NCBI GenBank assembly: GCA_008638375.1
Contig: CM018048.1
Location: 51,469,675-51,533,674, forward strand
DNA length: 64,000 bases
Reading direction: 5' to 3'
DNA from: Nyssa sinensis
Taxonomy: Eukaryota > Streptophyta > Magnoliopsida > Cornales > Nyssaceae
A program made the position numbers and the translations under genes. Shown here piece by piece: positions 6,629 through 60,180 of the stretch; within the stretch, counting starts at the first letter, position 1, and each line of letters starts with the position of its first letter. Below the pieces are notes generated by a model. That model made no database searches. It saw nothing but the letters and a program-made list of their open reading frames with translations, and was not told the origin of the DNA.

Positions 6629-7007
6629 TTAGCCAGTAGTTGCAGCCTCTTACAGCTTTCTCCCCAAGAAAAACCATTTTTGTTTGACTTCTCTTTCTTC
6701 CACATCTGTTTCTGGCATCCCAAGATCCTCCTTACCTTGGCAATCTGACAAGCCCGGTCCTTTTCTAGCCGCTCCTACCTCTTTGTTGACTTCTCCAGGG
6801 TGCTTCTTCACATGTGCTCCTCATGGAATATCCTAATCCTATTTCATCCTTTCTTGAGAATATATATTACTCATACTCCATTTGTCTTACCTGTTTCTGC
6901 AACAGACAAGTCCATCGATGCCTCTTCTGATGACGAAATTTTCATGATGAATCCTCTTACTCCTTCTGAAGTTCCTATTGTAGAAGAAGATGTTGATAAT
7001 GATATAT

Positions 7008-14021: not shown

Positions 14022-15236
14022 CTAACCCCTTGTATCTCCTCCTCGTGGCTTGGAACAAGAAGTCTGTGTTTGTTGTTGATTTCCACCACCACTGCCGCCG
14101 CCACTTCGACCCATAAACTGGAACTCCTTTTTATCGTAAATCTCCAATGAAAAATCTCTCAACATCATCTGAGCTTTAGAACCCCCAGAACTAATGCTCG
14201 CCGGCGCCATACTAGACTTCTTTGTCCCCGAAGAAGCCGCCGTATCAGAAGTCATTATACTGTTACACAAGGCAGGTGACGGAGTACGAATTTCCACCCC
14301 GCCTACTGGGTTAACCACCGCCGCCGGCTGCGTCGCTGCGACGAACGATGAGATAGGCCTGGCCGACATGTTGAAAACCGGTGTTACCGAGGGTGATATG
14401 GTCCATAATTGGGGTTGGTTCAAGTTCGACGGACCACCAGCCACCGGTGTCGCCGCCGCAGTCGGCGGTATCATCCAGAAAGTGTTGGATGGTATCATCA
14501 TGCCGGCGTTGCTCACCGCCCAAACGGGCACCAGTCCTTGTGGTGCTGCAGCGACTGTTGTGGGTCCCACTGGGGCGAGTCCGGCGGCCTGCGAAACAGT
14601 GTCATTCGCACTCACGTCGTAGAACTCGCTGTTGGATGGTCTTCGTCTCCTCTTTGCGGTGGTGTGACTATCCCCATCTTGATTGCTCGACGATGTCGTT
14701 GGAATTTTCAGGGTCCCACCAACAGACACCGCAATGGCCGGGACGGTTCCCGTCCCAGTCGCCTCGATGATAGCTTGCTCGGCGTGTTCAAGAAGCCACC
14801 TGACTGTCTCACCGTCGGACTTGTGGCCGAGCTCTCGGGTCAACTGGAAGATACGGGCGGCGCAAGTTGCCGGTATTCGGATCCTACGGCCACGTCCCTC
14901 GACCTTCGTGTGCCTATCTTTAGTCGATGACCGTCGAGTGGTGGTGGCGACCGGCATCCGCATGGGCACCGGCATCTGCATCAATGGTACCATTCCAATC
15001 GAGGCTTGTGCTTGTGTGTTGTTGTAGCCGTAGGGCTTCTGATCCGGCGATTGAGGGTCCGAATAGACGGGTTCTTCTTTCAAAACGGGTTGTGTCGTGG
15101 ATGATGGGTGGTCAAAGGACGTGCCTTTTGCGAGTCCATTATTGTTGTCGTCGGGATCGCCTGCACTGGTGCTGAGATCGGAGGTACCATCTTCGTCGTC
15201 GTCTGGTTCGATCTCGTGGTCATGAAACGCCGACAT
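14022..15236 (-). CDS. TCP9: class I TCP transcription factor (TCP9/TCP19-like)
   Basis: A nuclear DNA-binding regulator of growth and leaf or organ development. A single exon encodes 404 aa. An acidic N-terminus (residues 8-20) and a low-complexity region are followed by the basic helix-loop-helix-like TCP domain at about 104-160. It begins [20 protein letters not shown] and continues through [20 protein letters not shown]. The lack of the four-residue insertion in the basic region places it in class I (PCF), whose family binds [27 protein letters not shown] follows, with a basic [13 protein letters not shown] segment that could be a nuclear signal, a WMIPPTA motif, and a C-terminal [19 protein letters not shown] motif characteristic of TCP9/TCP19. 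The 5' leader has a possible intron whose CAG acceptor abuts the ATG. The symbol is by family resemblance; TCP19 is the alternative. Confidence 0.92.
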
Positions 15237-30900: not shown

Positions 30901-31005
30901 AAGATCTTATTTATAGGTTGTAGATCTCATAAGCTGAGTACGATTAGGAGTTATAAAAATAAAGATTTGAAGATATCTGAAGATAATAGTTACCATATTG
31001 AACTT

Positions 31006-31151
31006 TGTTTCCTTATTCTAAGGTCTGTAGAATATGGGAAACGGTTCTATGTTCTGAACCATATACTTCTGAACCTTTTGTTTCCTTATTCTAAGGTCTG
31101 TAGGATATGAGAGACGGTGCTATATTCTGAACCATATACTTCTGAACCTTC
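31006..31151. repeat. 73-bp tandem duplication
   Basis: Two head-to-tail copies (about 31006-31078 and 31079-31151) share GTTTCCTTATTCTAAGGTCT, ATATG(G/A)GA(A/G)ACGGT and TCTGAACCATATACTTCTGA. They differ at only a few positions, so the duplication is fairly recent. Confidence 0.8.
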
Positions 31152-41413: not shown

Positions 41414-43367
41414 CTAAACTTCAACAGTTGTTTGATTAAGAGCCTTGTATCTCCACCGCTCTTTCTCCACAAAGTCTGCATCCAGGAAGCGAGAAACAAA
41501 TGCCCAGAGGCTATACATGTCCTCAAAGTTTGTCAAAAACCCCTGTGAGGCCGTCACCACCGATATCCCCGAATGCAAATTGTCTCTCTTCTTACTAATT
41601 CCCACTGTTCCTTCTTCTTCAGTGCTTCCTGTCTCTAATATTTTCTCCTTCTCTTCTTCATACTTGTCCGAAAACCAAATGTGATGCAAGAATCCATAGC
41701 TGAGAGAAATGTTGTTTCGATCAGCCAATTTCTGTACTAGTGTGGGATCAATTTTTTCTCCTTTCCAATCAAACACATTGAATGCCAGGGCAGGTCCCCG
41801 GTCAAACTTTATCTTTGGGCCATAGATTCTGACCAGGGGAAGCCCATTTTCTGAATGTGGATGTTGAAGACTCATTAATGCATTAACCAGCCAGTTGACC
41901 AGGTACCTTGCTCTGTTACTGATAAGTATCAGACCCAATGAATCCGCATGATCCAAGCCCCTGAATTTAATCTCTGAGCTCCCATCAGCACTAGTTTCAG
42001 TGGTTATGGATTGCTCAGAGTCCAGGGGTTTATCTAATTCCACAATTTCTGGGATTGATTTTTCCTTCTTTTTTGCAAGGATTTCTTTAGTTTCTTGTAA
42101 TTCAGAAGTCTCACCACTCTGTGGAACAGATATAGAGGTGGAGAATGAACTTGGGCTGGCTAAATCATCAATTTTTGATGTTTGTTTAAGTTGTTGATCA
42201 GTGATGGACGACTCTTCAGGGGACTCAGATTGTCTTCCAGGTGGGACAAGACTCACAACCCCTATGCTTGTAGTTATGGTGGAATTACTGAACACTGAAG
42301 CACTGGATTTCCTGACAAACAGGCAGCCAAACCCAGGATGGGTTTTCTCCGAAAACCTTATAAAAGGAGCAAATTAGAAAGTCTGGTCGAAAGAGAGACA
42401 AACCCAAAGTTTCCATGTCCTTGGCTCCCAATGCACATGCATCAAGCAAGACATGCCACCCATTTTCCTGTGCCAGGCTCATCCATAGATAAGAAAACCG
42501 GGCTCCAGTCATCCGGGACTGTAATGGGAAAACAAACAAACCCCTCTTGATCTTCTTCCTCTTATGTACTACTATCTTCCTTAATTTCGCGGATAGGATC
42601 CTCAAGTTGGGCCATAAGAACTCAGCTGATGTGACTCTTGCACCTCTCTTTTTGGAGCTTTCGATCATCGCTTCCAATGTTTCATTCTCGTAATCATAGA
42701 CTGTAAGAAGATTTCGATTCGTCTGGAATGGATAAGAGTCTGCTAGAAGTTTAAAAGCAGAAGACTGGTTGGCAGTGAAAACTAGGGAGTAATCATCTTC
42801 AGAGATATTCATAAATTTCATGATTCTTTTCCGGATTTTGGATTCAAATTCTGATTCTTGGCCACCATACAGTATTTGAGAGCTCAAATTTACTGACTTG
42901 TAAAGAATTTCAAAGAAGGGTGCTTGTGAATCGTTGGTATGCAGTGTTGGAGGAGGAGATGATGATGTAGAGGCAATTGAAGTAGTGGGAAAATGACTTT
43001 GTTGCTGCTGGGAGTAGGAGAAGAGGCAATGCCCAATATAATCAAGACAGACATGGTTGGAGAGGGAGAGATGGTAGTATTCTCGGGCTCGGATTTTGTC
43101 AGCTTGATCTGTCTGTGAGTATTGTGGGAATGATTTGTTGAAGTTAGAAAATGATTCAGACAAAGAAGGAAGGGACTCATGGTTAGTGAATAGAGTGTGT
43201 GGATAGAGGGAGGAAGCTGTGGCAGCAGCAAAGTTGTTCTGGGGATTGATGGCACTGCTGCTTGGCTTGGGAGTGGTTTTATGGGGGTCAGGCAAGGCAA
43301 GAAAAGGAGCTGGACAGCAACCATGAAAACAGGCTTGTGAGGCCTCTCTAATGCAAGGTGATTGCAT
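41414..43367 (-). CDS. PLP-dependent transferase superfamily protein, molybdenum cofactor sulfurase-like, with one frameshift
   Basis: An aminotransferase class V-like fold protein resembling the N-terminal NifS-like domain of MoCo sulfurases; its function in plants is not established. It appears to be a single exon. The first frame runs from ATG 43367 to about 42335. It includes YDYENETLEAM, the FPLQSRMTGARFSYLW segment, VLLDACALGAKDMETLGLS, and the FYKVFGENPS motif, whose Lys (about residue 337) should bind PLP. The remainder, including FRGLDHADSLGLILISNRAR and RIYGPKIKFDRGPALAFN, is in the next frame to the stop at 41414. The span is 1954 nt, one more than a multiple of three, so a single extra base near 42335 explains the break. 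The corrected length of about 650 aa fits the subfamily. It is either a recent pseudogene or a sequence error. Confidence 0.8.
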
Positions 43368-44721
43368 TTTCCCCTTCTATTGTTCTCTCCAAGTTTCTTT
43401 GTCTATGTGCCTTTCCTTGTTTTTCTTGTTGGTTTCACCCAATTTGCTCTGATTTTTCATTGGCTATTAGTTTGTGTAGGAATGTGGAAAGTGTCATTTG
43501 ATTTGTCAACTTTAGACAGCTTGTCAGATGGGGCAAACAGGTCAACACACTAATGGTCGAAGTCTTCCATCATTCCCAATGCTTGTCTTATTCGCTTTTA
43601 GAATAGTTTCCGAAATTTTGATCAAATTAATAGATGGACCAGATATAATGACAAATCATTTAATTTATTACAAGAACAGAGGTAAATGCCTAAATGGCTT
43701 ATTATTTCGGCTTGTGTATGATTGAAAATCATTTTCCGTTTTGTTATTACTGGTGAAAATATTGTTATCTCATGCATCTTATTCTCAAATTAGGTATATC
43801 TCTATTTTAAATTGAAATTGAAATATTTATTTATCACATGAATGTGGGACTTAAGTTGAATTCAACTATAATGAAATAAGATGAGTCGGTCCCACTTTTA
43901 TGTGAAATTTCAACTTGAAAATGGAGATAAGTCGACTCATCAATCCAAACCGTTTGATGTGCATAAGCCCGAACATCTAAACCGTAGTTTGAAGTGTTGA
44001 CTTTTATCATAAAAAATCGGGGACCAAAAGAACTCGTATGTTTGGTTATGTTTTTCAAAACAAATTTTCAATTTCAAAATGCAAGATACGTTTTTTGAAA
44101 TAAATTATTTTAAATTTTTTAAATTTAAATTATCATATCCAAATATATTTTCATAATTTTTTAAAAATTAAGTACAAAATTTTTTGAAATATTTTTAAAA
44201 AAATTATATTTGAAACACTAATCAAACACAGTTTCTATGTGAAATGAACAGTTCACATTGGAAAATAGGGTAGAAGGAGCAAAGACCTCAATGGTCCAGC
44301 ACATTGCTTTATCATAATTGTGTGCTTAAAATTAACACCCTTCCTTGTTGACAAATATGAAGTGGTTGTGGTGTTTTCAGAGAGATAAAGGGTAATAGAG
44401 TGTCATTGAAATTAAAGCTTAGCAGATACGAAAAGAGCAAGAAACAAGCAGACAAGGGCAAGGAAAGGGCATAGTAGTGGCCGGCACTATGACTATCAAA
44501 GCAAGAAAGACAGAAGAAGCTTCGTTGCAAATGGTTCTCTCAGTTGGCTAATGCTGTGCGTGACCATCTCCTACAACTAGATAGACAATAACGCCCCTCA
44601 ATTAGTTGGGTAGTTTCCAAAGTTTGCATAGACAAGTCTTTTTCATTGCATGTTAATGTTGGCCCCTCACAAAAAAGCAGCTCTCATTTGTCATTTGCGG
44701 CTCTGTTCTATCAATAGAACT

Positions 44722-45768: not shown

Positions 45769-45778
45769 GATTTTGAAA

Positions 45779-45786
45779 TGTTGAGA

Positions 45787-45819
<33 letters not shown>

Positions 45820-45859
45820 ACCTTAATCTGGCGCCTTAGACCAACTCGGCCATCTCAAC
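45779..45859 (-). tRNA. tRNA-Leu(UAA): tRNA-Leu(UAA)
   Basis: On the minus strand an 81-nt gene folds as a class II (long variable arm) tRNA. The acceptor stem GTTGAGA pairs with TCTCAAC followed by discriminator A. The D arm is TGGCCGAGTTGGTCTAAGGC. The anticodon stem CCAGA/TCTGG encloses TTAAGGT with anticodon TAA. The variable arm is GTCCGAAAGGGC and the T arm is GTGGGTTCAAATCCCAC. CCA is not encoded, as expected for a nuclear gene, and there is no intron. Box A (TGGCCGAGTTGG) and box B (GGTTCAAATCC) provide the internal promoter. A T5 run downstream should terminate Pol III. Confidence 0.96.
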
Positions 45860-48469
45860 ATTTGTACGTATCTTTTGTTACTTTTTTAAATAATAACGTA
45901 AGTGGAACTTGGGCCTAATGTCCGGTTGGGCTTAGGCTAACCCAGCCCACAATCTGCTCTCTTCAGCTAGCCTATTAAGCCCACAGTCTGTAACATCCAG
46001 CTTGAAATATCTCATTTAAATTAGTTAAAGCTATAATTTGTTGGGATATTTTCCGGGCCAAAAAAGAATAGCTTGGTAATGAGCAATTGGATGTGTATCT
46101 TTCATTTGGGTTGCTTCCAGCTTCAAGAAAACATGTGGTTTACGTCAATCTTAAAGACAGTTTCACATTTATATATTTAAGCAAAACTAATTCCTTTGAT
46201 GAATTATCCCATCTGACCATCAAGTTTGTCCCTCACTATTTCTTATCTGTCTGTCCATATAGGGTCCATGAAAGCTATAATCACAGTGAACACATTCAAG
46301 TTGCATCATGTTTTGTTTTCCACACATATCATCTCTGGAGCTGCTTCCACAAGTATCTTTATTAACTGACATGGAAGATAGGCAGATGAAGTTAGTATAC
46401 AGATCAAAGAAAACAAGCATATCATCAGAGATGACTGTGGCTGGTGTATTGGAGGATATCATACTTGGCTTTATAGGCATGTGTAGAAGCTTGATGTCTG
46501 AACTCTGGGGGGATTAGAAAGGGCCGCAAAGAAACATCATCGTGGAAGCAGATTGCGAAGTTACTATCAATTTGTTGAAGATTGAAGAAATGGAATCTAG
46601 AAACCATGAGACGCTCGTCTGCTAGCTTCAAATTTTATTTCTTGCTTCTTCATCATACTCTGCGGGTGGATAACTGTTGTGGTAAAATTTGGCGTGATCA
46701 GATCAATGGCTGAGATCTGGGGATTCCTGCAAAACAGTTGGCAATGAATTCACTGGAGAGGCCCGGTAATAGCCACTTCGAGGATTAAGTGAGAAGATAG
46801 ATTTTTTTATCTACCAGAAGGTGTAAGCAATCAATTGAACTTTAGGGCTAGGACATACCTTGCAATGTCTTTATAAGCAATGTAATTGCCCTTTCGATCA
46901 AATCTTACGAGAGAATCTCGGTATCTTGATTTGATCAAGATTGGCTTGAAATAGCAGTTTCCTTTTAGGACTCTTAGATGGGTCCAAACGTGAAAATCGG
47001 ACTCTTGCTTGTAAAACTAAAGATCAATTCCGACATCCTGAGTAAGTTGGCAGATGACGTTGTTAAGGTCTGCAACTCGGAATGTTTACCAAACTGACCT
47101 ATTGATAGGTCGACCGGAATGCCCATTTTTGCCATTCTTTTGTCGATCATGATCATACGCGATTTGGGTATCCAAGCGTCCCAATATATCTTAACAGTAG
47201 TAAAAAAAATATATCAATAACCAATGTGCTGACTATGTTGCAAATATGGGTGTAGCTTGGAGATTCAGAACCTCCCAGCTAGAATGTTCACTTTCTCCCG
47301 GCCAACTAAAAAACATTTTGATGCTGTCATGCGGATCATCATGTCCTGGAATGATCACATTTTGTTGTGTCTAGTTCAATGTTTCTCTCAGATGTTACAC
47401 AAACGTGCATGCATATTTTCTTTTCTCTTTTTTCTTTCTTCAGGTTCTTAATTTATTAATCACTTGGTTGTTTTTATAGTCCGTGATCAGGATAGTTTAA
47501 CAGGGTCTAAGATCTTTTGAAGTATGACAGTAACGGGGTTATGTGTCTCCCCTCTTGGACAATGATCTTTCTACATAAGACACTTTATTGCATTTCAATC
47601 AAATTTGCAGAACTTTTATGTTGAATTCATTGGACTTTATTGGAGTCATCATATTAAGGGGAGAGGTTGATTTGCTTTGACAATAATTAAAGAGGAGGAA
47701 AAGCAAAGCCATTAAGACCCCAAATAGTCATTTAATTTGTTTTGGCTTTCTTACTTCGCTCTTGATCTTCTTCTTTTTTTTAATTTAATTGTTTATGTTT
47801 ATTCTTTATTAACATATATAAACTATTACATGCGATGGACAAAAAACCAGTGGCAATACTATTATCTTATGCGCTCGATCACTAGCTGTGGAGCTCTCAT
47901 TCTAGGCTCTAAATTATATAGAATGTTGAGATTAACTCATGATTATCATTTCATCTAATATGTAAGTGATATCAGATGACTGCTATTTTGGTTCTGGCAT
48001 TAAGATCGTTGAAGAAAAACACAACCTCAAATATCAACATAACATGGGCCATGATATCTTATCCATGCATGCAATTAATTAATGTCCAACAGGGCTTCAT
48101 GTGCTCCTTGCAGTCTTTCTCTATAAGAAATTAGAAATGGAATTAGGTCCTTCATCCAAAGTTTCCCAGGAAGATTTAACTTCACATGCATTCTCTAATA
48201 TTAAGTATTTGAGGCAAATGCAATGCTGGTAAACCTTCCTATTTCTAACTATATGCTAATTATTCACCAAATCATATCATTGGTTAGTTCACATCATGAA
48301 GAATTTAATCTGGTTTTTGAAGTATAAAAAATTTCTAAAGCATTGAGCGAAGAGGCCATACTTAATACACAACTTACAAAAAGAAAATACAACAGACATG
48401 CATTTTAGTTTCCTGATCATACCTTGTGCATGAAGTGCAAGCAGAAGCAATGGCCTTCATATATATTAA
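45860..48469. other. intergenic spacer with a possible LINE fragment
   Basis: No intact gene. Around 46520-46620 on the plus strand a short stretch reads VEADCEVTINLL, resembling the RNase H tail of plant non-LTR elements, but too short to be certain. The rest is unremarkable AT-rich sequence. Confidence 0.4.
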
Positions 48470-48523
48470 GCTGAAGCAGTCGTAGGGCAACTCTCCTTTG
48501 GCAGCTCAATGGTTTTTTTATTA

Positions 48524-48558
<35 letters not shown>

Positions 48559-48615
48559 TAACTTGCCATCAGCTGCCGCAGGAGCCTTGCCCTACAACTG
48601 GTTCGCTTATTAGAA
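48470..48615 (-). ncRNA. MIR399: MIR399 precursor hairpin (phosphate-starvation microRNA)
   Basis: On the minus strand, positions 48503-48483 read TGCCAAAGGAGAG followed by TTGCCCTA, a perfect miR399-type 21-mer with the usual 5' U. It lies on the 3' arm, as in known MIR399 precursors. The opposite arm (48596-48573 on the minus strand) is TAGGGCAAGGCTCCTGCGGC followed by AGCT. It pairs with the mature strand with only a few internal mismatches, and pairing continues outward (CAGTCGTAGGGC against GCCCTACAACTGG) and inward (GGCAGCTCAATGG against CCATCAGCTGCC). The loop contains an (AT)n array. miR399 family members silence UBC24/PHO2 and so raise phosphate uptake. Folding was done by eye. The gene is too short for ORF detection and overlaps no protein gene. 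Confidence 0.88.
48523..48556. repeat. (AT)n microsatellite forming the MIR399 loop
   Basis: A perfect TA array between the two hairpin arms. Its length is likely to vary between individuals without touching the stem. Confidence 0.8.
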
Positions 48616-48689
48616 ACTTGTCATGCTGCTGCACCATGGCCGATCAAACCATCTGTGGGATAAATATCACATACCGGCCTGTCAAGAGC

Positions 48690-48695
48690 TTTATA
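48690..48695 (-). promoter_or_regulatory. MIR399: TATA box of MIR399
   Basis: TATAAA (in CCTATAAAGCT) on the minus strand lies about 80 bp before the hairpin base. A start about 30 bp downstream would leave a short leader before the stem. The P1BS sites lie just upstream of it, supporting the assignment. Confidence 0.6.
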
Positions 48696-48741
48696 GGCTC
48701 CTTGCCTTTCCAGGGCAATGGAATAAGCCGTTGAGAAAATA

Positions 48742-48749
48742 GCATATGC
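48742..48749. promoter_or_regulatory. P1BS (PHR1-binding) site, proximal to MIR399
   Basis: GCATATGC matches the palindromic GNATATNC consensus bound by PHR1-type MYB factors of the phosphate-starvation response. It lies about 47 bp upstream of the MIR399 TATA box. Confidence 0.65.
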
Positions 48750-48765
48750 TATTGGGTTATGCCAT

Positions 48766-48773
48766 GGATATCC
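48766..48773. promoter_or_regulatory. P1BS (PHR1-binding) site, distal to MIR399
   Basis: GGATATCC matches GNATATNC. Two such sites within 32 bp upstream of a miR399 hairpin is the arrangement expected of a phosphate-starvation-inducible promoter. Confidence 0.65.
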
Positions 48774-48888: not shown

Positions 48889-48895
48889 CTCTCTC

Positions 48896-48932
<37 letters not shown>
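48889..48932. repeat. (CT)n microsatellite
   Basis: A long CT array, interrupted once or twice, between the MIR399 promoter and the copia element. Confidence 0.85.
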
Positions 48933-48992: not shown

Positions 48993-49207
48993 TGTGAAAG
49001 AATATAGAATATCTTTGTATTCTATATTTAGTGTATATATATTAGGAATAGATTTTAGGAATATTAGTTGTAATTCCCTAATTTTGTGTGATTAGGCTTG
49101 ATTGATGTAGTTTCCTTATTTATAATTTTCGGTTTTCCTATATATACACATATGTATTAGTACGAATGATTCAATAAATATATACCCAATTTATCAGAAA
49201 TCTTTCA
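48993..49207 (+). repeat. 5' LTR of the copia element
   Basis: A 215-bp direct repeat starting TGTGAAAGAATATAG and ending AAATCTTTCA. It contains a TATATATACA promoter-like motif. It differs from the 3' LTR at roughly 15 positions, implying an insertion that is not recent. Confidence 0.92.
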
Positions 49208-49219
49208 TGGTATCAGAGT
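49208..49219 (+). other. primer-binding site of the copia element
   Basis: TGGTATCAGAG directly follows the 5' LTR and complements the 3' end of initiator-Met tRNA. Confidence 0.85.
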
Positions 49220-52200
49220 CGTTCTTCTTTTTCTTTTCTCTCTTTTGTTCCAACATTGCAGTGTCGCTTCCTGCTGCTTCCGTTTTTTTCTTTTCTTTCC
49301 CTACTGCTGCGCCGCTTCTCCTTTTTCTTTCTTTCTTTTGATTCTGCTCTTGCGCCGCACTCCCTCTTTTCTTCTTTTTTTGTTCTGCGCCGCACTGCTT
49401 CTTTGCTTTTCTTTCCCCTTTTCTTTTTGCTTTTGCTTCTACGCGCGTCGCTTCTTTTCCAACGTCTCTCTTTCTCTCTTTCTCTCTCTTCTTTTCTATT
49501 TTTTTTCCTTCCGTTGCTCTTGCGCCGCCACTCTACTGCTACTCTTCTTCTATCTTTTTCCTTTTTTCCAACCTACTGCATCACCCTGCCCAGCTGCAGC
49601 TTTCTTTTTCTCTTTATTATAGTTTGTCCCTAGAATTTACAGTTAATTCAAAATACCCCAATTGTTATTAAACTTACATTATAATGACTGAGGATAAAAT
49701 TCATGCTATTAGTTGCAAACTCAATAGTGCCAATTACACCTATTGGGCTAGTGTTATGACAAATTTTATACTTGGCTGCAAAAAGTGAGGTTATGTATCT
49801 GGTTCCATCTTTTGTCCATCAGATCCCAAGAAAAAGGGGTATGAGGCTGCATGTGAAACTTGGGATTGTGACAATGCTCAGATTCTGACTTGGTTCCACA
49901 ACTCTGTGGATGACCGGATTGGGATGATGTTTTCTAAGTACTCCACAGCAAATGAGGTGTGGACGTACTTACTTGGTGTTTATCAGCAGTCCAACTTTGC
50001 CAAACGGTATGAGTTGAAGACAGTCATTCAGGGTGTCCGTTAGGGAGACAAGTCTATTTAAGATTTTTATATTGAGATGACTGGTCTCTAGGATCAGCTT
50101 GCTATGATGGAGCCCTCTAGCATAAGTGTACTTGATGATTATTTGAAGTTTCGGGAAGATGGTCGTTTAGTACAATTCTTAACTGCCCTCTCTTCTCAAT
50201 TTGAGACGATTCGTGGTGGCATTTTTTACCGGTCTCCTCTTTCCTCTATGGATGCTATTGTTCGTGAACTTTTTTCTAAGGAAACCCGACTGAAGACAGG
50301 TAGTCAGGCTTTATCTCCTTCTGTCTTTTTAGCTCCTGCATAGCCAACTCTACTGTCTACTCCTCCTACTACTCTGCTTTAGTCCACTAGAAAGCCTAAG
50401 AGGGTCTCACTACCCTTAGATGAGTGTGTTTTTTGTCATTAGAAGGGCCATTGGAAGTATAATTAGTCCCAAGAAGGGACGTCCGCTCACTTCCTCTCAG
50501 CAGTCCTCCACACAGTTTCGAGCCCTTGCTCCTCATACTTCTCAGTCTCCAGCAGCCTACACAGCATCTTCTTTCGCTAGTGATTCTGATATTGTTTCCT
50601 TGAGTGTTCAGATTGCTCAGCTCCAGCACCTTGTGTCTTCTGCCACCCAGTCTTCTGCTTCTGCCCTATCTCTTCATTTAGGTTTGCCTGGGTTTTTCTC
50701 AGGTATCTCTCTCCTAGTCTGGATTTTTGATTCTAGTGCTTCCCATCATATGACTCCTTGTCTTTCTTTATTACACAATTGTATCCCACCTCCTTCTCCC
50801 ATTACTGTTAATGCTGCCAATGGATCTCGCATGCCTGTCTTATCCATTGGTTCTATCTTACCCTTCAGATAAATCTGCAATAACAATTCCTTCTGTTTTT
50901 TATGTTCCGCATTTATCTGTTAGTCTCCTTTCCATTAGTCAACTTGATGCATCTGGTTTTGATGTCATGTTTTCTTCTTTTGTTTGTACTGTGCAGGATC
51001 GGTTGTCCAAGAAACAGATTGGGACCGGGTGTAAAGTTGGGGATTTGTATGTGGTGGAAAGTTTACATCTTCCTTCTAGTATTTCTTCATCTGCTCTTTC
51101 TTCTTTTTAGTTAAACTCTCAGTCTAGTCAGTTTTACTTATAGCATTCGCGGTTAGGTCATTTGTCTGTTGATCGTTTACAATCTTTAGTTCAGTTTGGT
51201 CTTTTGGGTAAAGTTTCACTTAGTGAACTTACCGAGTGTCGCGGTTGTAAACTTGCTAAAATGATAGTTTTACCGTTTAATAAAAGTACTTCAATTTCTA
51301 ATACACCTTTCTCTTTAGTTCACTCTGATGTCATCTTCTTGACACTGCGCGATCCCTTCTTCTTCTGCTTCTGTTCTAGCACCTTTTTAAGGTGAAGCTG
51401 TTCTTACTGCTACCTTTCTTCTAAACCGAATGCTTACTCCTATTCTTTCTGGTCGTTCCCCTTACGAAGCTCTGTATTCTGAAGTACCTAATTACTCTCT
51501 TCTTCATGTTTTTGGGTGTGCTTACTTTGTTTTACTCCCTCGGAAAGATAGAACCAAATTGAGTGCCAGGTCTGTTTTCTGTGTCTTCTTAGGGTACAGT
51601 TTCAACCCATAAAGGTTATCGTTGCTATGATTCTATTTCTCGTCGTCTTTATATCTCTCACCATGTGGCTTTTCTAGGAACGATTGGCTTACTTTCAGCT
51701 ACCTACTACCACTGCTACTGTCTCCAAAGAGGATCTGAACCAAATTGATCATTTTCCTTCTGATGTGCCTTCTGATAAGTATATCTCTACAGTCACTACT
51801 AAGTCCCTTCCTGAACCCACTGGTTATAGAGTCACCTCTGAATCCACTAGTCTTAAGGTCACTACTGAGTCAACTAGTCCTCTTTCGTCTCCTCCCTTAC
51901 TTGTCTACTCTCGTCGCCAAACACTTCCCCCACTAGATATCTCTCTCCCTGTTCCTTCCACTTCTGAAGACACTGATCCTGCTCCCCGTCGCTATCTTTT
52001 TCTCCTTCGCCAGCCATCAGTAAAATTGCTTGGTTTTTCTAACACTTATTTCTCTCCTTCCTACTGTACTTTCTTGTTTGTTATTCACTCTTTTTCAGAA
52101 CCACAATCTTATAGGGAAGCTTGTCAAAATCCTCATTGGGTCCAGGCTATAGCTGGTAAGAATCTGATTGGCTGTAAATGGGTCTTTAAAGTCAAAACAA

Positions 52201-53586
52201 ACTCTGATGGCTCTCTTGAGCGTTACAAAGCTTGATTTGTTGCTAAGGGATTCTCTCAAGAATATGGTCTTGACTATGAGGAGACATTTACCCCTGTTGC
52301 CAAAATGACCATTGTCCGTACATTGATATCAGTTGCTGCCATTCACTCTTGGCCCCTCTATCAAATGGACGTTAAAAATGCCTTTCTTAACGGCCATCTT
52401 ACAGAAGAAGTCTATATGCGTCATCCACCAGGACTGCCTCATTCTTCCGACCAGGTGTGTCGTCTTCGTCGTGCCCTTTATGGTTTGAAACAGTCTCCAC
52501 AAGCTTGGTATGACCGCTTTCAGACAACTGTTACTCAGCTTGGTTTTCTTTCCAGTGCTTATGACTCTGCCTTGTTTCTTCTTCACACCTCCTCTGGATT
52601 TGTTGGTTTATTATTGTATATAAATGATATGATCATCACTTGGCTTTGATTCTTCTGCCATCACTCTCGTAAAGCAGCTATTTGTTTCGCACCTTTGAAA
52701 TGAAGGACTTAGGGTCTTTTGCGATATTTTCTTGGAATTGAAGTGGCCTACTCTCCAAGGGCTACTTTCTTTCATAGGCTAAGTATGCTAATGAGGTTAT
52801 TCATCGGGCTAGCTTGCCCGATTCTAAGGTTTTTGACACTCCAATTGAGCTGAATGTGAAACTGAAATCTACTGAAGGTGTCCCTTTGGATGATCCTTCT
52901 TTGTATAGGGAACTTTTTGGTTGCTTGGTCTACCTCACTGTCACTCATCTTGATCTTGCCTATGCTGTCCATATCATCAGTCAATTTGTTTCCGCTCCTC
53001 GTTCCCCACACTGGGCTGCCTTGGTTCGAATTATGCGTTATCTTCGTGGTACTATCTATTAGGGTTTGCTTTTATCTTTTACTTCCTCTTTGACACTCGT
53101 TGCTTATGCTGATTCTGATTGGGCTAGTGATGTCACTGATCGCAAGTTCACTTCTGGTTTATGCTTGTTTCTTGGTGATTCTCTTATTTCTTGGAAAAAC
53201 AAGAAGCAAAGTGTTGTTAACCGTTCTACTGCTGAGGCCGAGTACCGTGCTATGACACATGCTACAGTTGAAATTGTTTGGCTTCGTGGTATTTTGTCTG
53301 ATTTGGGAGTTTTTCAGTCTTCTCCAATTCCTCTCTATTGTAACAACAAAAGTGCTATCCAAATTAGCTCACAATACAGTGTTTCATGAACGCACTAAAC
53401 CTATTGAGATTGATTGTCATTTTGTTCGTCTCCATTTGCAGTCTGGCTCTATCTCCCTTCCGTTCGTTTCCACTTTGCTCCAACTTACTGATTTCTTTAC
53501 GAAGACTCACATTGTTACTCACTTTCAGTTCCTTCTTGGCAAACTCTCGGTGTTTTCATCCAAAACCCCTTGAGTTTGAGGGAGGG

Positions 53587-53800
53587 TGTCAAAGAATATA
53601 GAATATCTTTGTATTCTATATTTATTTATATATTTTAGGAATAGATTTTAGAAATATTAGTTGTAATTCCCTAATTTTGTGTGATTAGGCTTGATTAATG
53701 CAGTTTCCTTATTTGTAGTTTTCATTTTTTCTATATATACACATATGTATTAGTACGAATGATTCAATGAATATATACCCAATTTATCAGAAATCTTTCA
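53587..53800 (+). repeat. 3' LTR of the copia element
   Basis: A 214-bp repeat of the 5' LTR, starting TGTCAAAGAATATAG and ending AAATCTTTCA. A polypurine tract, TTTGAGGGAGGG, immediately precedes it. Confidence 0.92.
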
Positions 53801-54652
53801 CAGCCAGAGGAGATGCATGCTTTCTTTTTGCTCATAGGATCGAGGTGGCAGCAAAACCTGGGCTTTAAGGTATATCCTGTGTCATATTCTCTAATTTTGT
53901 TCACCTGCTTTATGTTTTGGCCTCTGATCGTGTTTAGAAATCCTAATAACCCTTGAATGACAATGCCATTGTTTATTGTTGTCAAATCACAATGACCCCC
54001 AGACACTGTAAATTTATCTTCAATTCCCTTTTTCTTTCATGTATATGCATGGTCTACCTTTTTGTCTCTCTAATACCGTATTATGTACACAAATTCAACA
54101 AGGTTTATGTAATCCACAATGTGTTACTAGGTACATGAGGATCAATGAACTTCATTATATTTTGAAAAAAGAAAAAGATTCTAATGATATTTCATATATT
54201 CCTGTCAGCTCTTATGATTTTGAGAATTCAAACCATTTGAATGGTACACATACCCCCTGAAATCAAAAGTACTGACCCTATATCACCGGTAACTCTATAT
54301 ATGTTTTTCTTCTCAAACTATGAACAGTTAGTTGTGTTAATATTGTTGTATATGATCATATGATATTATAGCAATTACATCTCTGAATTGGGCATTCATT
54401 TTCTCTTTTACAGCAAAATATTTTATATAATAAATTATGGAACCTATATCATTACACTTAATTGGTGGTTCCTTTTTAGGTTTCATGAAACCACATTTCA
54501 AACTAGTTTTCCAGTCAATCATTCAAAATGATAGCTTCATTTTATGTGATGCTGAGGTTCTTATGTTGCCTCTACATGTTCTTAATTTAAATCACATCAA
54601 CTTCTACCAATTTCTCAGAAAATAAATATATATGGCTAGCTAGGGTACGTAT

Positions 54653-55088: not shown

Positions 55089-57539
55089 TCAGTTTGATGT
55101 ATCACTTGCAAGTCTCTCACTCAGTATCCTAACACCCATATATCTGCATAGCAAATTAGACCAAGCATTAGTGATAAAACCAATATTAATCATAAAATAA
55201 CAATGAAAATGAAAATATGAAAATTTGTTTATATTAATTACCTTCCAAGCATCATAACAGTGGCTTGGGGATTCGTCCCAGGAGAGTAATTAAAGGTAGA
55301 ACCATCGATAACTCGTAGTGCATCCACACCAAGAACTTTATAATCACGATCAACAACCATACCAACCTGGCAACCTCCATGGTAATGCCATATGGTCATG
55401 ACAGTGTCCCTACAGAATTGTTCCAATGAGGTGGAAACATTGCTATGCTTAGGCAGCAAATTCACTGGAGCACTTGCTGTCATGTTGAGAAGTGTCTGCA
55501 CTGACATGCCATCATATCTAAACTTAGAGAAGGACTTCGATTCGATTATTCTCTCAATGGTTCTGATGCCCTCCACACATCTTTGTAAGTCCTCAGGTTC
55601 CTTGAAGTAGTTGAAAGTAACAGAGGGATTTTCATTAGGGTTACGATTTCGGAGCTCGAGATGGCCAGTGGAGAGGGGTCCCATGATCTTCTCAAGAATG
55701 AAACCACCTCTGAAAACTGCTTCATCAAGATTACTCATGGACTCTACAGCTTTGGCTATGGCTTCTGGTGTTCTTTGTTTAGGTGGCACTGTTAGAGAGC
55801 TGACCAATCTGCAAATGTGTAACAAAATTTAGTTTCCTTGAAGTAAAAATGAATTATGCATTGTGGGCTCGGCCCGTTACGTCTAGTGGGCCGGTCTGTC
55901 AACCATAGTAATGAGTTGGATTTTGAGGAACATATTGGGTTGAGAAAAAAAAAAGGGATATTCATATCGAATGACCCAATAATATGAAGAAATTAAAATT
56001 TCTGACCCCACTTAGAAGGGTGATGTAGGTAAACGGCAACTCCTTATCGGATCTCACCTATGTGGGTTAAGGTTATCACAAACTTCTGATTCAGAATATG
56101 GTTTTTGACTTGTATATTGGCATAAACAACAATGTTTTACGTAGAATTGCCTCGGAAATGCAATTTTGGGCCTCCTCAGGTAAATGAGTTGGTAAAAATG
56201 GAGGAATAAGGTACCTTAGGGGAAAACATTCCGAAGTCTCTGTGAGGGCTTCCGCCGGCAAAGTTTTCACCACTGGCGGCTTCGATATAGCTTCCAAAGT
56301 GAGTGATTCCAACAATTTGGATGAGGGAGACCTCAACTGGGAGAGGAGAGGGAATGAAAATGGCATTCATGGGGTTATCAGACATGCCTTGGCCAACCAA
56401 GGGCTGGTCCAGCACCATTGTGATGTTATGGGCCTTGAGTTGATCTGCAGGGCCCACGCCACTCAACATCAAAAGCTGTGGGCTTCCCAGTGCACCAGCC
56501 GATACTATGATCTCGTTCTTTGCTCCACTCTTTAAATAAGCTTTGTGCTTAATTCCTGATGCGTCTCTGAAGATCACTCCGTGAGCTACTGGCCTTGATT
56601 TTCCTGAATCAATACTTAAATTGGTTTAATCTTGGGTTAATAAGTGGACCAAGCAGATCATATATTTAGGAAAATGTTATGTATCCCTGTTTTATATATC
56701 CAATTGTATCCCTAATATGATATATCGAGATTTGGAAAGATCAAAATTATCATATTCTGATACATTATATTGATAACACAATTGAAAATATAAATTAAAA
56801 ATACCTAACACTACTCATATATTTATGAGATTATGGGCCCAATCTTTCGTAATGTCAGCTTTGGTGGTAGCTAAGAAATGTTACCCTAGGAATCATAGTG
56901 GGCAAGCCCATTTGAGAGAGAAATGATGGATGGTTACAGCACGTCATTATTAAATGAAGTGTTACAAGATTTATCAGTTTTCTATATTTACTATAAAAAA
57001 AATTCTAATAATTTTAAAAAGTAATAGAAATTATGAAAAAGAGTTACAGACTACATAAGAAATTGACGTGGGGTAACCATTTCAATAAATAACTTTTGTA
57101 TCTTCAATAATATAGAAATACAAATTCATGAGAAGTTTTTGAATGATAAATACGAAAGACTTTTTTTAAATTCTAAAATAGAAAATTGCATACCATTAGT
57201 CGTATATATGGATCGAGTCAATCAATTTCTATCATGTATACATGCCTAATTTTAAGAAGAAGAAAAACAGTTATTTCTGCCTACGAGGCATAACATGATT
57301 GATAGTATCATTAACTAAGTCAATGACCCAAATCACCTAAAAAATATATATATATATATATATAGAAAAATTTTGCATATTCCTAATTTATTCTTATTGG
57401 CGTAACATGATTGATAGTGCCATTAAGTAAGTCAATCACCCAATTCACCTAAGAAAAATACTACATATTCCTAATTTATTCTTAATGTGATACGTAAAAA
57501 CATGATAGTTTTAAATCTTACAAAGGGTGATGTTTAAAA

Positions 57540-57584
<45 letters not shown>

Positions 57585-57673
57585 TGAAACACCGTATTAG
57601 GGATACAATGGACGACACCTAACACTAAAAAAATTCTCATTTTTGTGCACATATAAATCCGTGTATGTATATA

Positions 57674-57708
<35 letters not shown>

Positions 57709-60180
57709 TTGCGTACCTTTGATTCTAAACAATATCTTATGAACAGAAGCGCGCAGAAGAAGAGTGAGCCCTTTAGGGTTTGCATACTGAAGCAAATCAG
57801 CGGCCGTGTGTCTATGCCCATCCGGGTCAAATATGGTCCCACCAACCTTAGTCCCATAAAGATGATCATAGGTAAATCCATTGTCTGGAACAACACCAAC
57901 TTCAACTAGTCCATCTCTCACCGCCGATTGCCACTGCTTCATAGGTGGTTGGAACGCCACCAGCTTTTCCACCCACTGGTACGACTCGTTTGCCAGCCGG
58001 CCATCCCACCCAACCCGTTTCACGTAGTCAGTGGCGGCTCGTGAGTAAAACCCGGCGTTTAAGCAGCTTCCACCGCCCAAAACACGAGCGCGTGCGCTTA
58101 TGACTCCGTCCTCGGAGATGAAGCGCTGTGAAGGGGATGTCGGAGACAGGTCGGAGAGCGCTTGCCCAAAAGCATCTAGGTTGGTTATGTTATTGTTGCC
58201 GTAGGGCGAGCCGCCTCGCTCGAGTAGAAGGACACTGTAGTTTTGAGAAAGAGTGGCGGCTAAAGGGCAGCCGGCGGTTCCACCACCGATGATGATGTAG
58301 TCGTAGTACGTTGTATTTGGGGCTGAGGTTGCTTCATGCATGAAAGTGTAATTCGGAGCTGTGGAGAGACGGAGAGATTAGTTCAGTAGACAATAGCTTG
58401 ATATATACTATTGTCTTAGCTATCTATAATCTATTCTTATGTATCTTATCTTTTTCTTTTATATATATAAAACCATAATGAGATTATGATTTTTGTTTTC
58501 TTATTTAGATATGTCACACATAATAATTTTTTATTTTATTTTATTTTTATGAATTGATAAAAAATTAATTTGAATCAGCTTGTGCACATTAGATTAAATC
58601 TTTTTATGTAACAATCAAGTACATTATTTAAACTTTAATTATCAATAGTTGATGCAGATAATCTTTAGATTTTTACACTCAGGTAGAAGCTCCTGGGTTA
58701 GATGTCATTGTGATGCAATTAAGAGGCTGGGAACATTATTGCTTTGTTGGTTGGACTTTAACTAGATCAACTGAAACACTCAAAATGGTCCATTAGTAGG
58801 GGTATAATTTGGATGGGTCAATTTGAATTCAACCTGAATTTGATTTCAATTTGTTAGGATTTAGGTTTCATTTTTTACATTTTGGGTTAGACTTGGCAAA
58901 AAGAACTTAAATTCGATCAAAATTAGGACTGGACTTAGATTGAGACTTTAAAAACTTGAGTTTAACCCGAACTTGAATTCAATATTTTATAATAAATTTT
59001 TTTATAAGAATTACTATTTATATTTTTATAATTTTATAAACTTATTGACTTTTAACATTTTTTTAAAATTAAATTTTGTTAAATAAATTATTTTAACGGT
59101 TTTTAGTTTCTTTTAGAAGAAAAAATTTGAGAAAAATTATTGAAACTTTTAGTTTATAATCAAAATAGGATTAAAAAAATAGCAATTTACTAAAAAAATC
59201 GTGAATAAAATTTAAAAATTAAAATTAATAATTGAGTTCAGGTCGGGCTCGGGTTGAATCCCGACACTAAAAAATTCTAATTCGGGTCTGACTCGGGTTG
59301 ATTGCTCGAGTTCAAGGTTGAGTTCAGAGTGGATTCGGAGTGATTGTTTTAGAATTTGAGTTAGGTTTAAACATAATTCAATCCGAAGTCGATACGCCCG
59401 AGTTGCACCCGTACCCACAAGTACAGAAAAAAAAACACCCAACCGTGAAAAAAATACAAAAAATATTTATATCTTGACCTTAGAACATTACACCCAATGA
59501 AGTTGTGATATGTTGATCACATGGCAGTATTATTTTTAATCTATATTAGAACTACTACATACTAAAATCATCAAATTCATCACACTGACCTGACCCTTGA
59601 AATAACTTTTTCGGGTCAAATGTTTACCATGCAATGCAAATGCTTCCGAAGCCAATAATTATTTGCTCCTCCAGTCCTTTATCTCAAGTAAGAGAACAGT
59701 CATGCAATTTAATGTACAATTAATTTTGGGCGGTGTGTTGGTTGCAACTAACCGCAAAAAAGCAGGGAAAATTGAAGATATTGACCAATTTTTGTCGCCT
59801 CGAAGGAAATTTAGGCAATAACCATTGAATTGCTTTAAAATACCTAAAGCAACAATATTAGCTTCAATGATTGTATAATAAAACATGTTTAACAGTACTT
59901 GAGCAACTTAAGAGGAGGGATGGGGGACAACTATATATGGACAATATCAAATTAAAACTCATGAGAGTACTGTATGTAAGTACAACCAATGAAAGCATAG
60001 CATGCATTCTTAGATTTCTTGCTTTCAGTTGCAGGACATCATCATTTTCAAGATTGCACAGAAAATAGCAAGAAAAACGAAGAAAATTTCACTGATACCT
60101 TTTTCCGAGAAACAGAAGCCATGAAAGAAGAGAATTCCAGCAACAGCAGCACCAAACAATCTCCACCACCCAAAACCCAT
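55089..60180 (-). CDS. GMC oxidoreductase, HOTHEAD/(R)-mandelonitrile lyase-like, with one frameshift
   Basis: An FAD-dependent glucose-methanol-choline oxidoreductase, secreted. Relatives act in cuticle fatty-acid oxidation (HOTHEAD) or cyanohydrin cleavage; the substrate here is unknown. Five exons: 60180-60099, 58358-57717, 56603-56215, 55808-55242 and 55143-55089. Exon 1 encodes a signal peptide (FGAAVAGILFFHGFCFS). Exon 2 has the FAD-binding YIIIGGGTAGCPLA motif and ARVLGGGSCLNAGFY. Exon 3 has NEIIVSAGALGSPQLLMLSG, the GMC signature 2. Exon 4 has the catalytic region WHYHGGCQVG and GTNPQATVMMLGR (His and Asn). Exon 4 is one base too long: just after its acceptor, an extra base in CTCTCTAACAG throws the frame before VPPKQRTPEAI. 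Without that base the product is 577 aa, the normal size. It is either a recent pseudogene or a sequence error. Intron 1 holds a decayed TIR element. Confidence 0.85.
57289..57490. repeat. tandem duplication in GMC intron 2
   Basis: TAACATGATTGATAGT(A/G)(T/C)CATTAA, AAGTCAATGACCCAA-like and TATTCCTAATTTATTCTTA blocks occur twice, at about 57289-57397 and 57400-57490. An AT array has expanded inside the first copy. Confidence 0.75.
57545..57582. repeat. (TA)n microsatellite in GMC intron 2
   Basis: Perfect TA array. A further TG/TA array lies at 57672-57708 immediately next to the exon 2 donor. Confidence 0.8.
58797..59415. repeat. decayed TIR element in GMC intron 1
   Basis: The left TAGGGGTATAATTTGG and right TTGCACCCGTAC are weak inverted ends around an AT-rich, non-coding interior with GGGTC/GACCC-type motifs. 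It resembles the other hAT-like short elements in the window only in style. Confidence 0.4.

What the first reader, a model, noticed from the sequence alone, without database searches (positions are those of the whole stretch)
48470..48773. Unlisted MIR399 gene with two P1BS sites and a microsatellite loop
Seen: a perfect miR399-type 21-mer on the 3' arm of a minus-strand hairpin, a well-paired opposite arm, TATAAA about 80 bp upstream, and two GNATATNC palindromes (48742 and 48766) just beyond it. Known: PHR1 activates MIR399 through P1BS, and miR399 represses PHO2/UBC24. Inference: this is a functional, phosphate-responsive MIR399 locus. The AT-microsatellite loop makes precursor length potentially polymorphic, which is unusual for such a conserved regulator.
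Basis: partly seen in the sequence, partly recalled or inferred. Interest (0 to 1): 0.8.

Follow-up and report, generated by a model that had tools for sequence, protein, structure and literature searches.

The report
Ancient MIR399 phosphate-starvation microRNA gene
This stretch of a tree genome holds an ordinary-looking gene for a well-known plant microRNA that helps plants cope with phosphate shortage; it sits in an old duplicated gene neighbourhood, and a jumping element has pushed part of its likely control region about 5,000 bases away.

Summary
The minus strand carries a MIR399 hairpin (48465-48612; fold z -9.25) with a perfect miR399 21-mer, a canonical duplex, a TATA box and two P1BS sites. 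Its genome holds at least nine MIR399 hairpins and a PHO2/UBC24-type gene with five miR399-complementary sites upstream, so the pathway partner is present. The gene lies in a TCP-MOCOS-MIR399-GMC neighbourhood found again complete on C15 and in part on C19 and elsewhere on C6. A MOCOS tree puts the window-versus-C15/C19 split before the rosid-asterid split, so this MIR399 position is probably as old as core eudicots (inference). Not in the finding: a 4.8-kb Ty1/copia element 219 bp beyond the P1BS pair moved another P1BS site, conserved in the nearest duplicate, from 561 to 5374 nt upstream of the microRNA; that duplicate lacks the element. The AT 'loop' folds as extra stem, leaves the predicted duplex unchanged at 0-40 units, recurs in one of six other precursors examined, and is not exceptional. 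Expression and phosphate response could not be tested. A real new member of a known family, of modest interest.

The parts
48465..48612 (-). MIR399 precursor hairpin (stem base 48467-48609)
   Evidence: folds; Rfam RF00445 at 48473-48604, 50.3 bits, E 1e-8 in the window scan
48483..48503 (-). mature miR399, 21 nt, 3' arm, 5' U
   Evidence: same 21-mer printed as N. benthamiana miR399-3 in PMC6296076
48572..48592 (-). predicted miR399 star, 5' arm, 2-nt 3' overhang; 17 of 21 mature bases paired, two symmetric 2x2 internal loops
48522..48556 (.). AT microsatellite in the distal part of the hairpin; folds as a continuation of the stem
   Evidence: TRF 17.5 copies, 93% matches; fold; length series
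48690..48695 (-). TATAAA box
   Evidence: sequence; an identical TATAAA in matching context in the C6 44.75-Mb copy
48742..48749 (.). P1BS site GCATATGC
   Evidence: the same site is present in the C15 and C19 copies and altered in the C6 44.75-Mb copy
48766..48773 (.). P1BS site GGATATCC
   Evidence: conserved in the C6 44.75-Mb copy; GAATATCC at the like position in C15
48993..53800 (+). Ty1/copia-type LTR retrotransposon inserted upstream of MIR399, in opposite orientation; LTRs 48993-49207 and 53587-53800
   Evidence: LTRs 202/214 aligned positions identical, K2P 0.059; flanking 5-mers alike at 4 of 5; primer-site-like sequence after the first LTR; RVT_2 domain at 52236-52649; absent from the duplicate
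53870..53877 (.). distal P1BS site, conserved in the duplicate, displaced by the insertion
   Evidence: GGATATAC in the same alignment column in window (insertion left out) and L009
54041..54048 (.). further P1BS match, not conserved in the duplicate
41414..43376 (-). MOCOS-like (PLP-dependent transferase) neighbour, in two overlapping reading frames
55238..58377 (-). GMC oxidoreductase (HOTHEAD-like) neighbour
14022..15236 (-). TCP9/TCP19-like transcription factor, farther neighbour

Best explanation
A genuine MIR399 gene on the minus strand. Shown by sequence: a conserved 21-mer in a canonical hairpin; a TATA box and a pair of PHR1-type P1BS sites upstream; a PHO2/UBC24-type gene with five complementary sites in the same genome; a duplicated gene neighbourhood. 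Inferred from known biology: under phosphate shortage PHR1-type factors bind the P1BS sites, RNA polymerase II starts about 30 nt after the TATA box, DCL1 cuts from the base (the duplex starts 16-17 nt above the stem base), and the miRNA represses PHO2. Also inferred: the MIR399 of this neighbourhood predates the rosid-asterid split and was kept in four duplicates, and a copia element later split the upstream P1BS sites of this copy.
For: 21-mer and hairpin; Rfam E 1e-10 on the 901-bp stretch, 1e-8 on the window; same 21-mer sequenced in phosphate-starved N. benthamiana, passages; 11 exact 19-mer places in the genome: 7 hairpins, 4 target sites; five complementary sites 0.7-1.1 kb before a UBE2O/UBC reading frame; 7 of 7 hairpins with at least 2 P1BS within 700 nt, random 1.3%; neighbourhood in copies; promoter conservation and empty site; tree.
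Against: No expression data. Below Rfam's curated threshold (50.3 against 57), though 6 of the 9 MIR399 hairpins scored are below it, counting each by its better strand. The genome-wide P1BS level is at chance in the window. Neighbourhood copies are incomplete: no GMC match in the 70 kb taken on C19, no MOCOS, TCP or SBT match in the 70 kb taken around C6 44.75 Mb. The tree does not make C15 and C19 sisters, and some of its inner nodes are weak. The seven hairpins are relatives, not independent samples.
Confidence: 0.87

Rival explanations
1. The gene was a MIR399 but is now silent or weak in this tree, because the copia element moved a conserved P1BS site away and may bring in repressive chromatin.
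For: Insertion 219 bp beyond the near P1BS pair; conserved distal P1BS moved from 561 to 5374 nt from the mature end.
Against: The near P1BS pair, TATA box, mature sequence and duplex are intact; 4 of 7 hairpins of the genome have no P1BS within 700 nt other than such a near pair, window aside.
Confidence: 0.15
2. The plus strand is the real or an additional hairpin gene (antisense).
For: The Rfam model also scores the plus strand, 41.4 bits; P1BS sites are palindromic.
Against: Minus strand scores higher, 50.3 bits; the perfect miR399 is on the minus strand, while the plus-strand 3' arm differs from it at 3 of 19 core positions; TATA box and P1BS lie upstream only for the minus strand.
Confidence: 0.02
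3. A chance inverted repeat or transposon hairpin that happens to resemble miR399.
For: AT-rich, repeat-rich surroundings.
Against: 0.01 matches expected; z -9.66 without the AT tract; the same hairpin lies at the same place in duplicated neighbourhoods.
Confidence: 0.01

Closest known systems
MIR399 family (Rfam RF00445), e.g. N. benthamiana miR399-3 as printed in PMC6296076
   Same: identical 21-mer, 3'-arm position, stem-loop, P1BS and TATA upstream, PHO2-type target with several sites
   Different: long AT tract in the distal stem; star arm with two 2x2 internal loops; below the Rfam curated score; copia element splitting the upstream P1BS sites
MIR399 copy at C6:44754827 of the same genome (L009)
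   Same: same neighbours (tRNA-Leu, GMC), alignable promoter with conserved P1BS and TATA, very similar star arm
   Different: mature ends in G not A; no long AT tract; no copia element; one of the near P1BS pair altered
Repeat-bearing pre-miRNAs surveyed in PMC5941480
   Same: dinucleotide repeats inside miRNA precursors, ath-miR399b with an 'at' repeat among them (passages)
   Different: the tract here is longer than a minimal repeat and forms extra stem; that survey's definition of a repeat was not checked here

Membership tests
MIR399 | mature 21-nt miR399 sequence | tested here: met
   exact core, 0.01 expected at up to 3 mismatches; identical to a published miR399 21-mer
MIR399 | stem-loop with the mature on the 3' arm, few mismatches, no large asymmetric bulge | tested here: met
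   17 of 21 bases paired, two symmetric 2x2 loops; z -9.25
MIR399 | Rfam RF00445 curated gathering score | tested here: inconclusive
   50.3 against 57 bits, E 1e-8; a curation threshold, not a biological criterion: 6 of 9 MIR399 hairpins scored in this genome are below it
MIR399 | P1BS sites in the promoter | tested here: met
   48742 and 48766; at least two within 700 nt in 7 of 7 hairpins examined
MIR399 | complementary sites before a PHO2/UBC24 gene of the same genome | tested here: met
   five sites in L011, own scores 3, 3, 3, 3.5 and 5.5; UBE2O SH3 and UQ_con domains downstream. The name PHO2 rests on this make-up and on recall
MIR399 | 21-nt reads from both arms (annotation standard) | not testable with these tools
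   no small-RNA reads available
MIR399 | induction by phosphate starvation | not testable with these tools
   no expression data
Ty1/copia LTR retrotransposon (48993-53800) | paired LTRs, TG...CA ends, target-site duplication, RVT_2 reverse transcriptase | tested here: met
   LTRs 94.4% alike, flanking 5-mers alike at 4 of 5 only; RVT_2 E 1.7e-36

The most novel reading that the evidence does not exclude
The MIR399 between MOCOS and GMC is a core-eudicot-age locus kept in four duplicates in Nyssa, and in this copy a retrotransposon has split the set of PHR1-binding sites, so that the duplicates now differ in their phosphate response: a natural experiment on how far a P1BS site can lie from a MIR399 promoter and still act.
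Probability: 0.3. Interest if true: 0.5.

Novelty: new member of a known kind. Interest (0 to 1): 0.3.

Why it matters
MIR399-PHO2 is a main switch of plant phosphate balance. The locus gives a dated, duplicated set of MIR399 genes in a Cornales tree, with one copy whose conserved upstream P1BS site was moved by a transposon beside a copy without the element. It also shows that Rfam's curated threshold misses all four hairpins of this neighbourhood and 6 of the 9 MIR399 hairpins scored here, so automatic annotation of MIR399 families is likely to be incomplete. The gene itself is ordinary.

Tried and rejected
Rejected: chance hairpin; plus-strand gene; AT tract as a threat to processing (no change of predicted duplex at 21 lengths); a second miR399 gene or a target site inside the window (one search found only the perfect complement of the gene itself at a score up to 7; one search found no other MIR399 match); MIR4208, mir-297 and mir-1277 matches as real (far below their curated scores, on AT- or repeat-rich stretches).

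Weakened by its own control: the claim of four P1BS sites in about 540 nt before the insertion. Poisson 7.6e-6 for that stretch, but the stretch was chosen after seeing it; a scan of the whole arrangement gives p 0.0015 and 0 of 300 simulated windows. The fourth site (54041) is not conserved in the duplicate, only the third (53870) is.

Led nowhere: a genome-wide search allowing one mismatch, a DNA search with the promoter and a MOCOS protein search of the whole genome did not complete, so the number of MIR399 genes is a lower bound. Literature: miR399 + P1BS + synteny gave 2 papers, neither on MIR399 synteny by title; miR399 + retrotransposon + promoter + insertion + phosphate starvation gave 21, 15 listed; MIR399 + syntenic + whole genome duplication gave 13, 12 listed, none read; Nyssa sinensis + miRNA gave 6, none about miRNAs of that species by title, none read.

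Full report
What was checked. The hairpin is real. The miR399 core is exact at 48485-48503 on the minus strand, with 0.01 matches expected by chance at up to 3 mismatches. The fold of 48460-48640 (-) has z -9.25, no shuffle of 200 being as good, and the arms alone, AT tract removed, z -9.66, none of 500. The 21-mer is 48483-48503, the predicted star 48572-48592; 17 of 21 mature bases are paired, with two symmetric 2x2 internal loops. The duplex begins 17 nt (5' side) and 16 nt (3' side) above the stem base, the distance I recall for base-to-loop processing by DCL1. Rfam's MIR399 model matches at E 1e-8 in the window scan, but at 50.3 bits, below the curated 57, and the default scan does not list it.

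The AT tract. TRF gives 17.5 copies at 48522-48556. It folds on itself as extra stem. Folding with 0 to 40 AT units in steps of 2 (21 lengths) left the miRNA duplex identical each time. A (TA)16 tract lies in the distal part of the C19 hairpin; the other five of the six other hairpins examined have no tract of 7 or more units in the loop. AT tracts of 14 or more units number 21 in 264 kb of this genome looked at. A survey lists an 'at' repeat in the Arabidopsis miR399b precursor and repeats, by its definition, in about 45% of Arabidopsis precursors (PMC5941480, passages). So the tract may well vary in length, but no effect on the miRNA is predicted and it is not exceptional.

Which genome. The closest listed proteins are from Davidia: 77% for TCP, 83% for MOCOS, 94% for GMC. 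The window lies at C6:51469675-51533674 of a genome of 1,000,968,657 bases. C6 (56,605,609) and C19 (33,277,714) have exactly the contig lengths listed for Nyssa sinensis proteins, and the Nyssa sinensis paper gives 1,000.96 Mb in 22 chromosomes (PMC6877568, passages). The words microRNA, miRNA and non-coding RNA do not occur in the main text of that paper.

The MIR399 set of the genome. The exact 19-nt core occurs 11 times: 7 places form 3'-arm hairpins and 4, all on C7 near 33.82 Mb, do not. Those four, and a fifth with mismatches, are complementary sites on the other strand, 0.7-1.1 kb before a reading frame with UBE2O SH3 domains and, further on, a ubiquitin-conjugating domain: the make-up of PHO2/UBC24 as I recall it. 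By my own scoring the window's miRNA scores 3, 3, 3, 3.5 and 5.5 at the five sites. Rfam adds two more MIR399 hairpins on C10, at L012 5896-6010 and L013 4114-4242, so the family has at least nine members; a one-mismatch search did not complete.

Promoters. Each of the 7 hairpins examined has at least two P1BS within 700 nt upstream, against 1.3% of random 700-bp stretches of the same regions. In 5 of 7 the two lie 22-28 nt apart (window 24, L010 23, L012 28, L013 22, L014 23); no random draw of 190,132 had a pair spaced 20-32, but those draws overlap and rest on few sites. In the other two, L009 and L015, one half of the pair is altered (by eye) and the second P1BS is at 515 and 639 nt. The hairpins are relatives, so these are not seven independent events. 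Published Arabidopsis and N. benthamiana MIR399 promoters have 1-3 P1BS each (PMC6296076, passages), so two is usual.

The neighbourhood. Window order: SBT, TCP, MOCOS, tRNA-Leu, MIR399, GMC. C15 has SBT, TCP, MOCOS, MIR399 and three GMC matches in the same order; C19 has MIR399, MOCOS, TCP and SBT in the same relative order and orientation, without a GMC match in the 70 kb taken; C6 near 44.75 Mb has tRNA-Leu (97.8% over 91 bp), MIR399 and GMC (85-90% identical protein pieces), without MOCOS, TCP or SBT matches in the 70 kb taken. A FastTree of MOCOS with 46 sequences (44 chosen from the 120 listed, the window and C15) puts the window with Davidia and Cornus in one clade of rosids and asterids (support 0.94) and C15 and C19 in another (1.0), the two joined (0.99) to the exclusion of Telopea, Ranunculus, Stephania and Colocasia, rooted on the last. 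This dates the split of the two neighbourhoods to about the core-eudicot base, as the gamma triplication would (inference). Against a simple picture, C15 and C19 are 83% identical but not sisters in the tree, and several inner nodes are weak.

The insertion. A Ty1/copia-type element occupies 48993-53800, on the plus strand, 219 bp beyond the near P1BS pair: LTRs identical at 202 of 214 aligned positions, K2P 0.059, flanking 5-mers alike at 4 of 5, reverse transcriptase RVT_2 E 1.7e-36. The C6 44.75-Mb copy aligns straight across the place without it, and its LTR has no match in the 200 kb of the three duplicate regions taken. With the insertion left out, P1BS sites lie 246, 270, 561 and 732 nt before the mature end; the ones at 270 and 561 are in the same alignment columns as sites of L009, the one at 732 is not, and the one at 246 is altered in L009. 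The site at 561 is now at 5374 nt (53870-53877). Whether this changes expression is unknown.

Verdict. A real MIR399 gene, probably functional, an ordinary member of its family by anatomy, with two points not in the finding: the old duplicated neighbourhood and the displaced upstream P1BS. Searches for either in print listed nothing on it by title, but most listed papers were not read.

Noticed in passing
48993-53800: Ty1/copia-type element head-to-head with MIR399, LTRs 94.4% alike; absent from the duplicate on C6 at 44.75 Mb.
   Followed up: yes
L012 5896-6010 (+) and L013 4114-4242 (+): Each C10 locus carries a second MIR399 hairpin on the opposite strand, above Rfam's curated score, 4 and 2.2 kb from the first: divergent MIR399 pairs.
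   Followed up: no
41414-43376: The MOCOS-like gene of the window is split over two overlapping frames, while the C15 copy matches both halves in one continuous frame: a decayed copy or an assembly error.
   Followed up: no
48889-48932: A 22-copy CT/GA microsatellite lies between the P1BS pair and the copia element; a shorter interrupted GA stretch is in the same place in L009.
   Followed up: partly
L015, about 65 nt upstream of the miRNA at 6957: A (TA)16 tract in the distal hairpin of the C19 copy, apparently independent of the tract in the window.
   Followed up: partly
L030-L035 (C15), about 34.6-57.3 kb of the joined stretch: Three GMC oxidoreductase matches in tandem beside the C15 MIR399.
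   Followed up: no
31004-31150: Two tandem copies of a 73-bp unit, 93% alike.
   Followed up: no
45778-45860: tRNA-Leu (AAG), with intron-like extra bases absent; its copy beside the C6 44.75-Mb MIR399 is 97.8% identical over 91 bp.
   Followed up: partly
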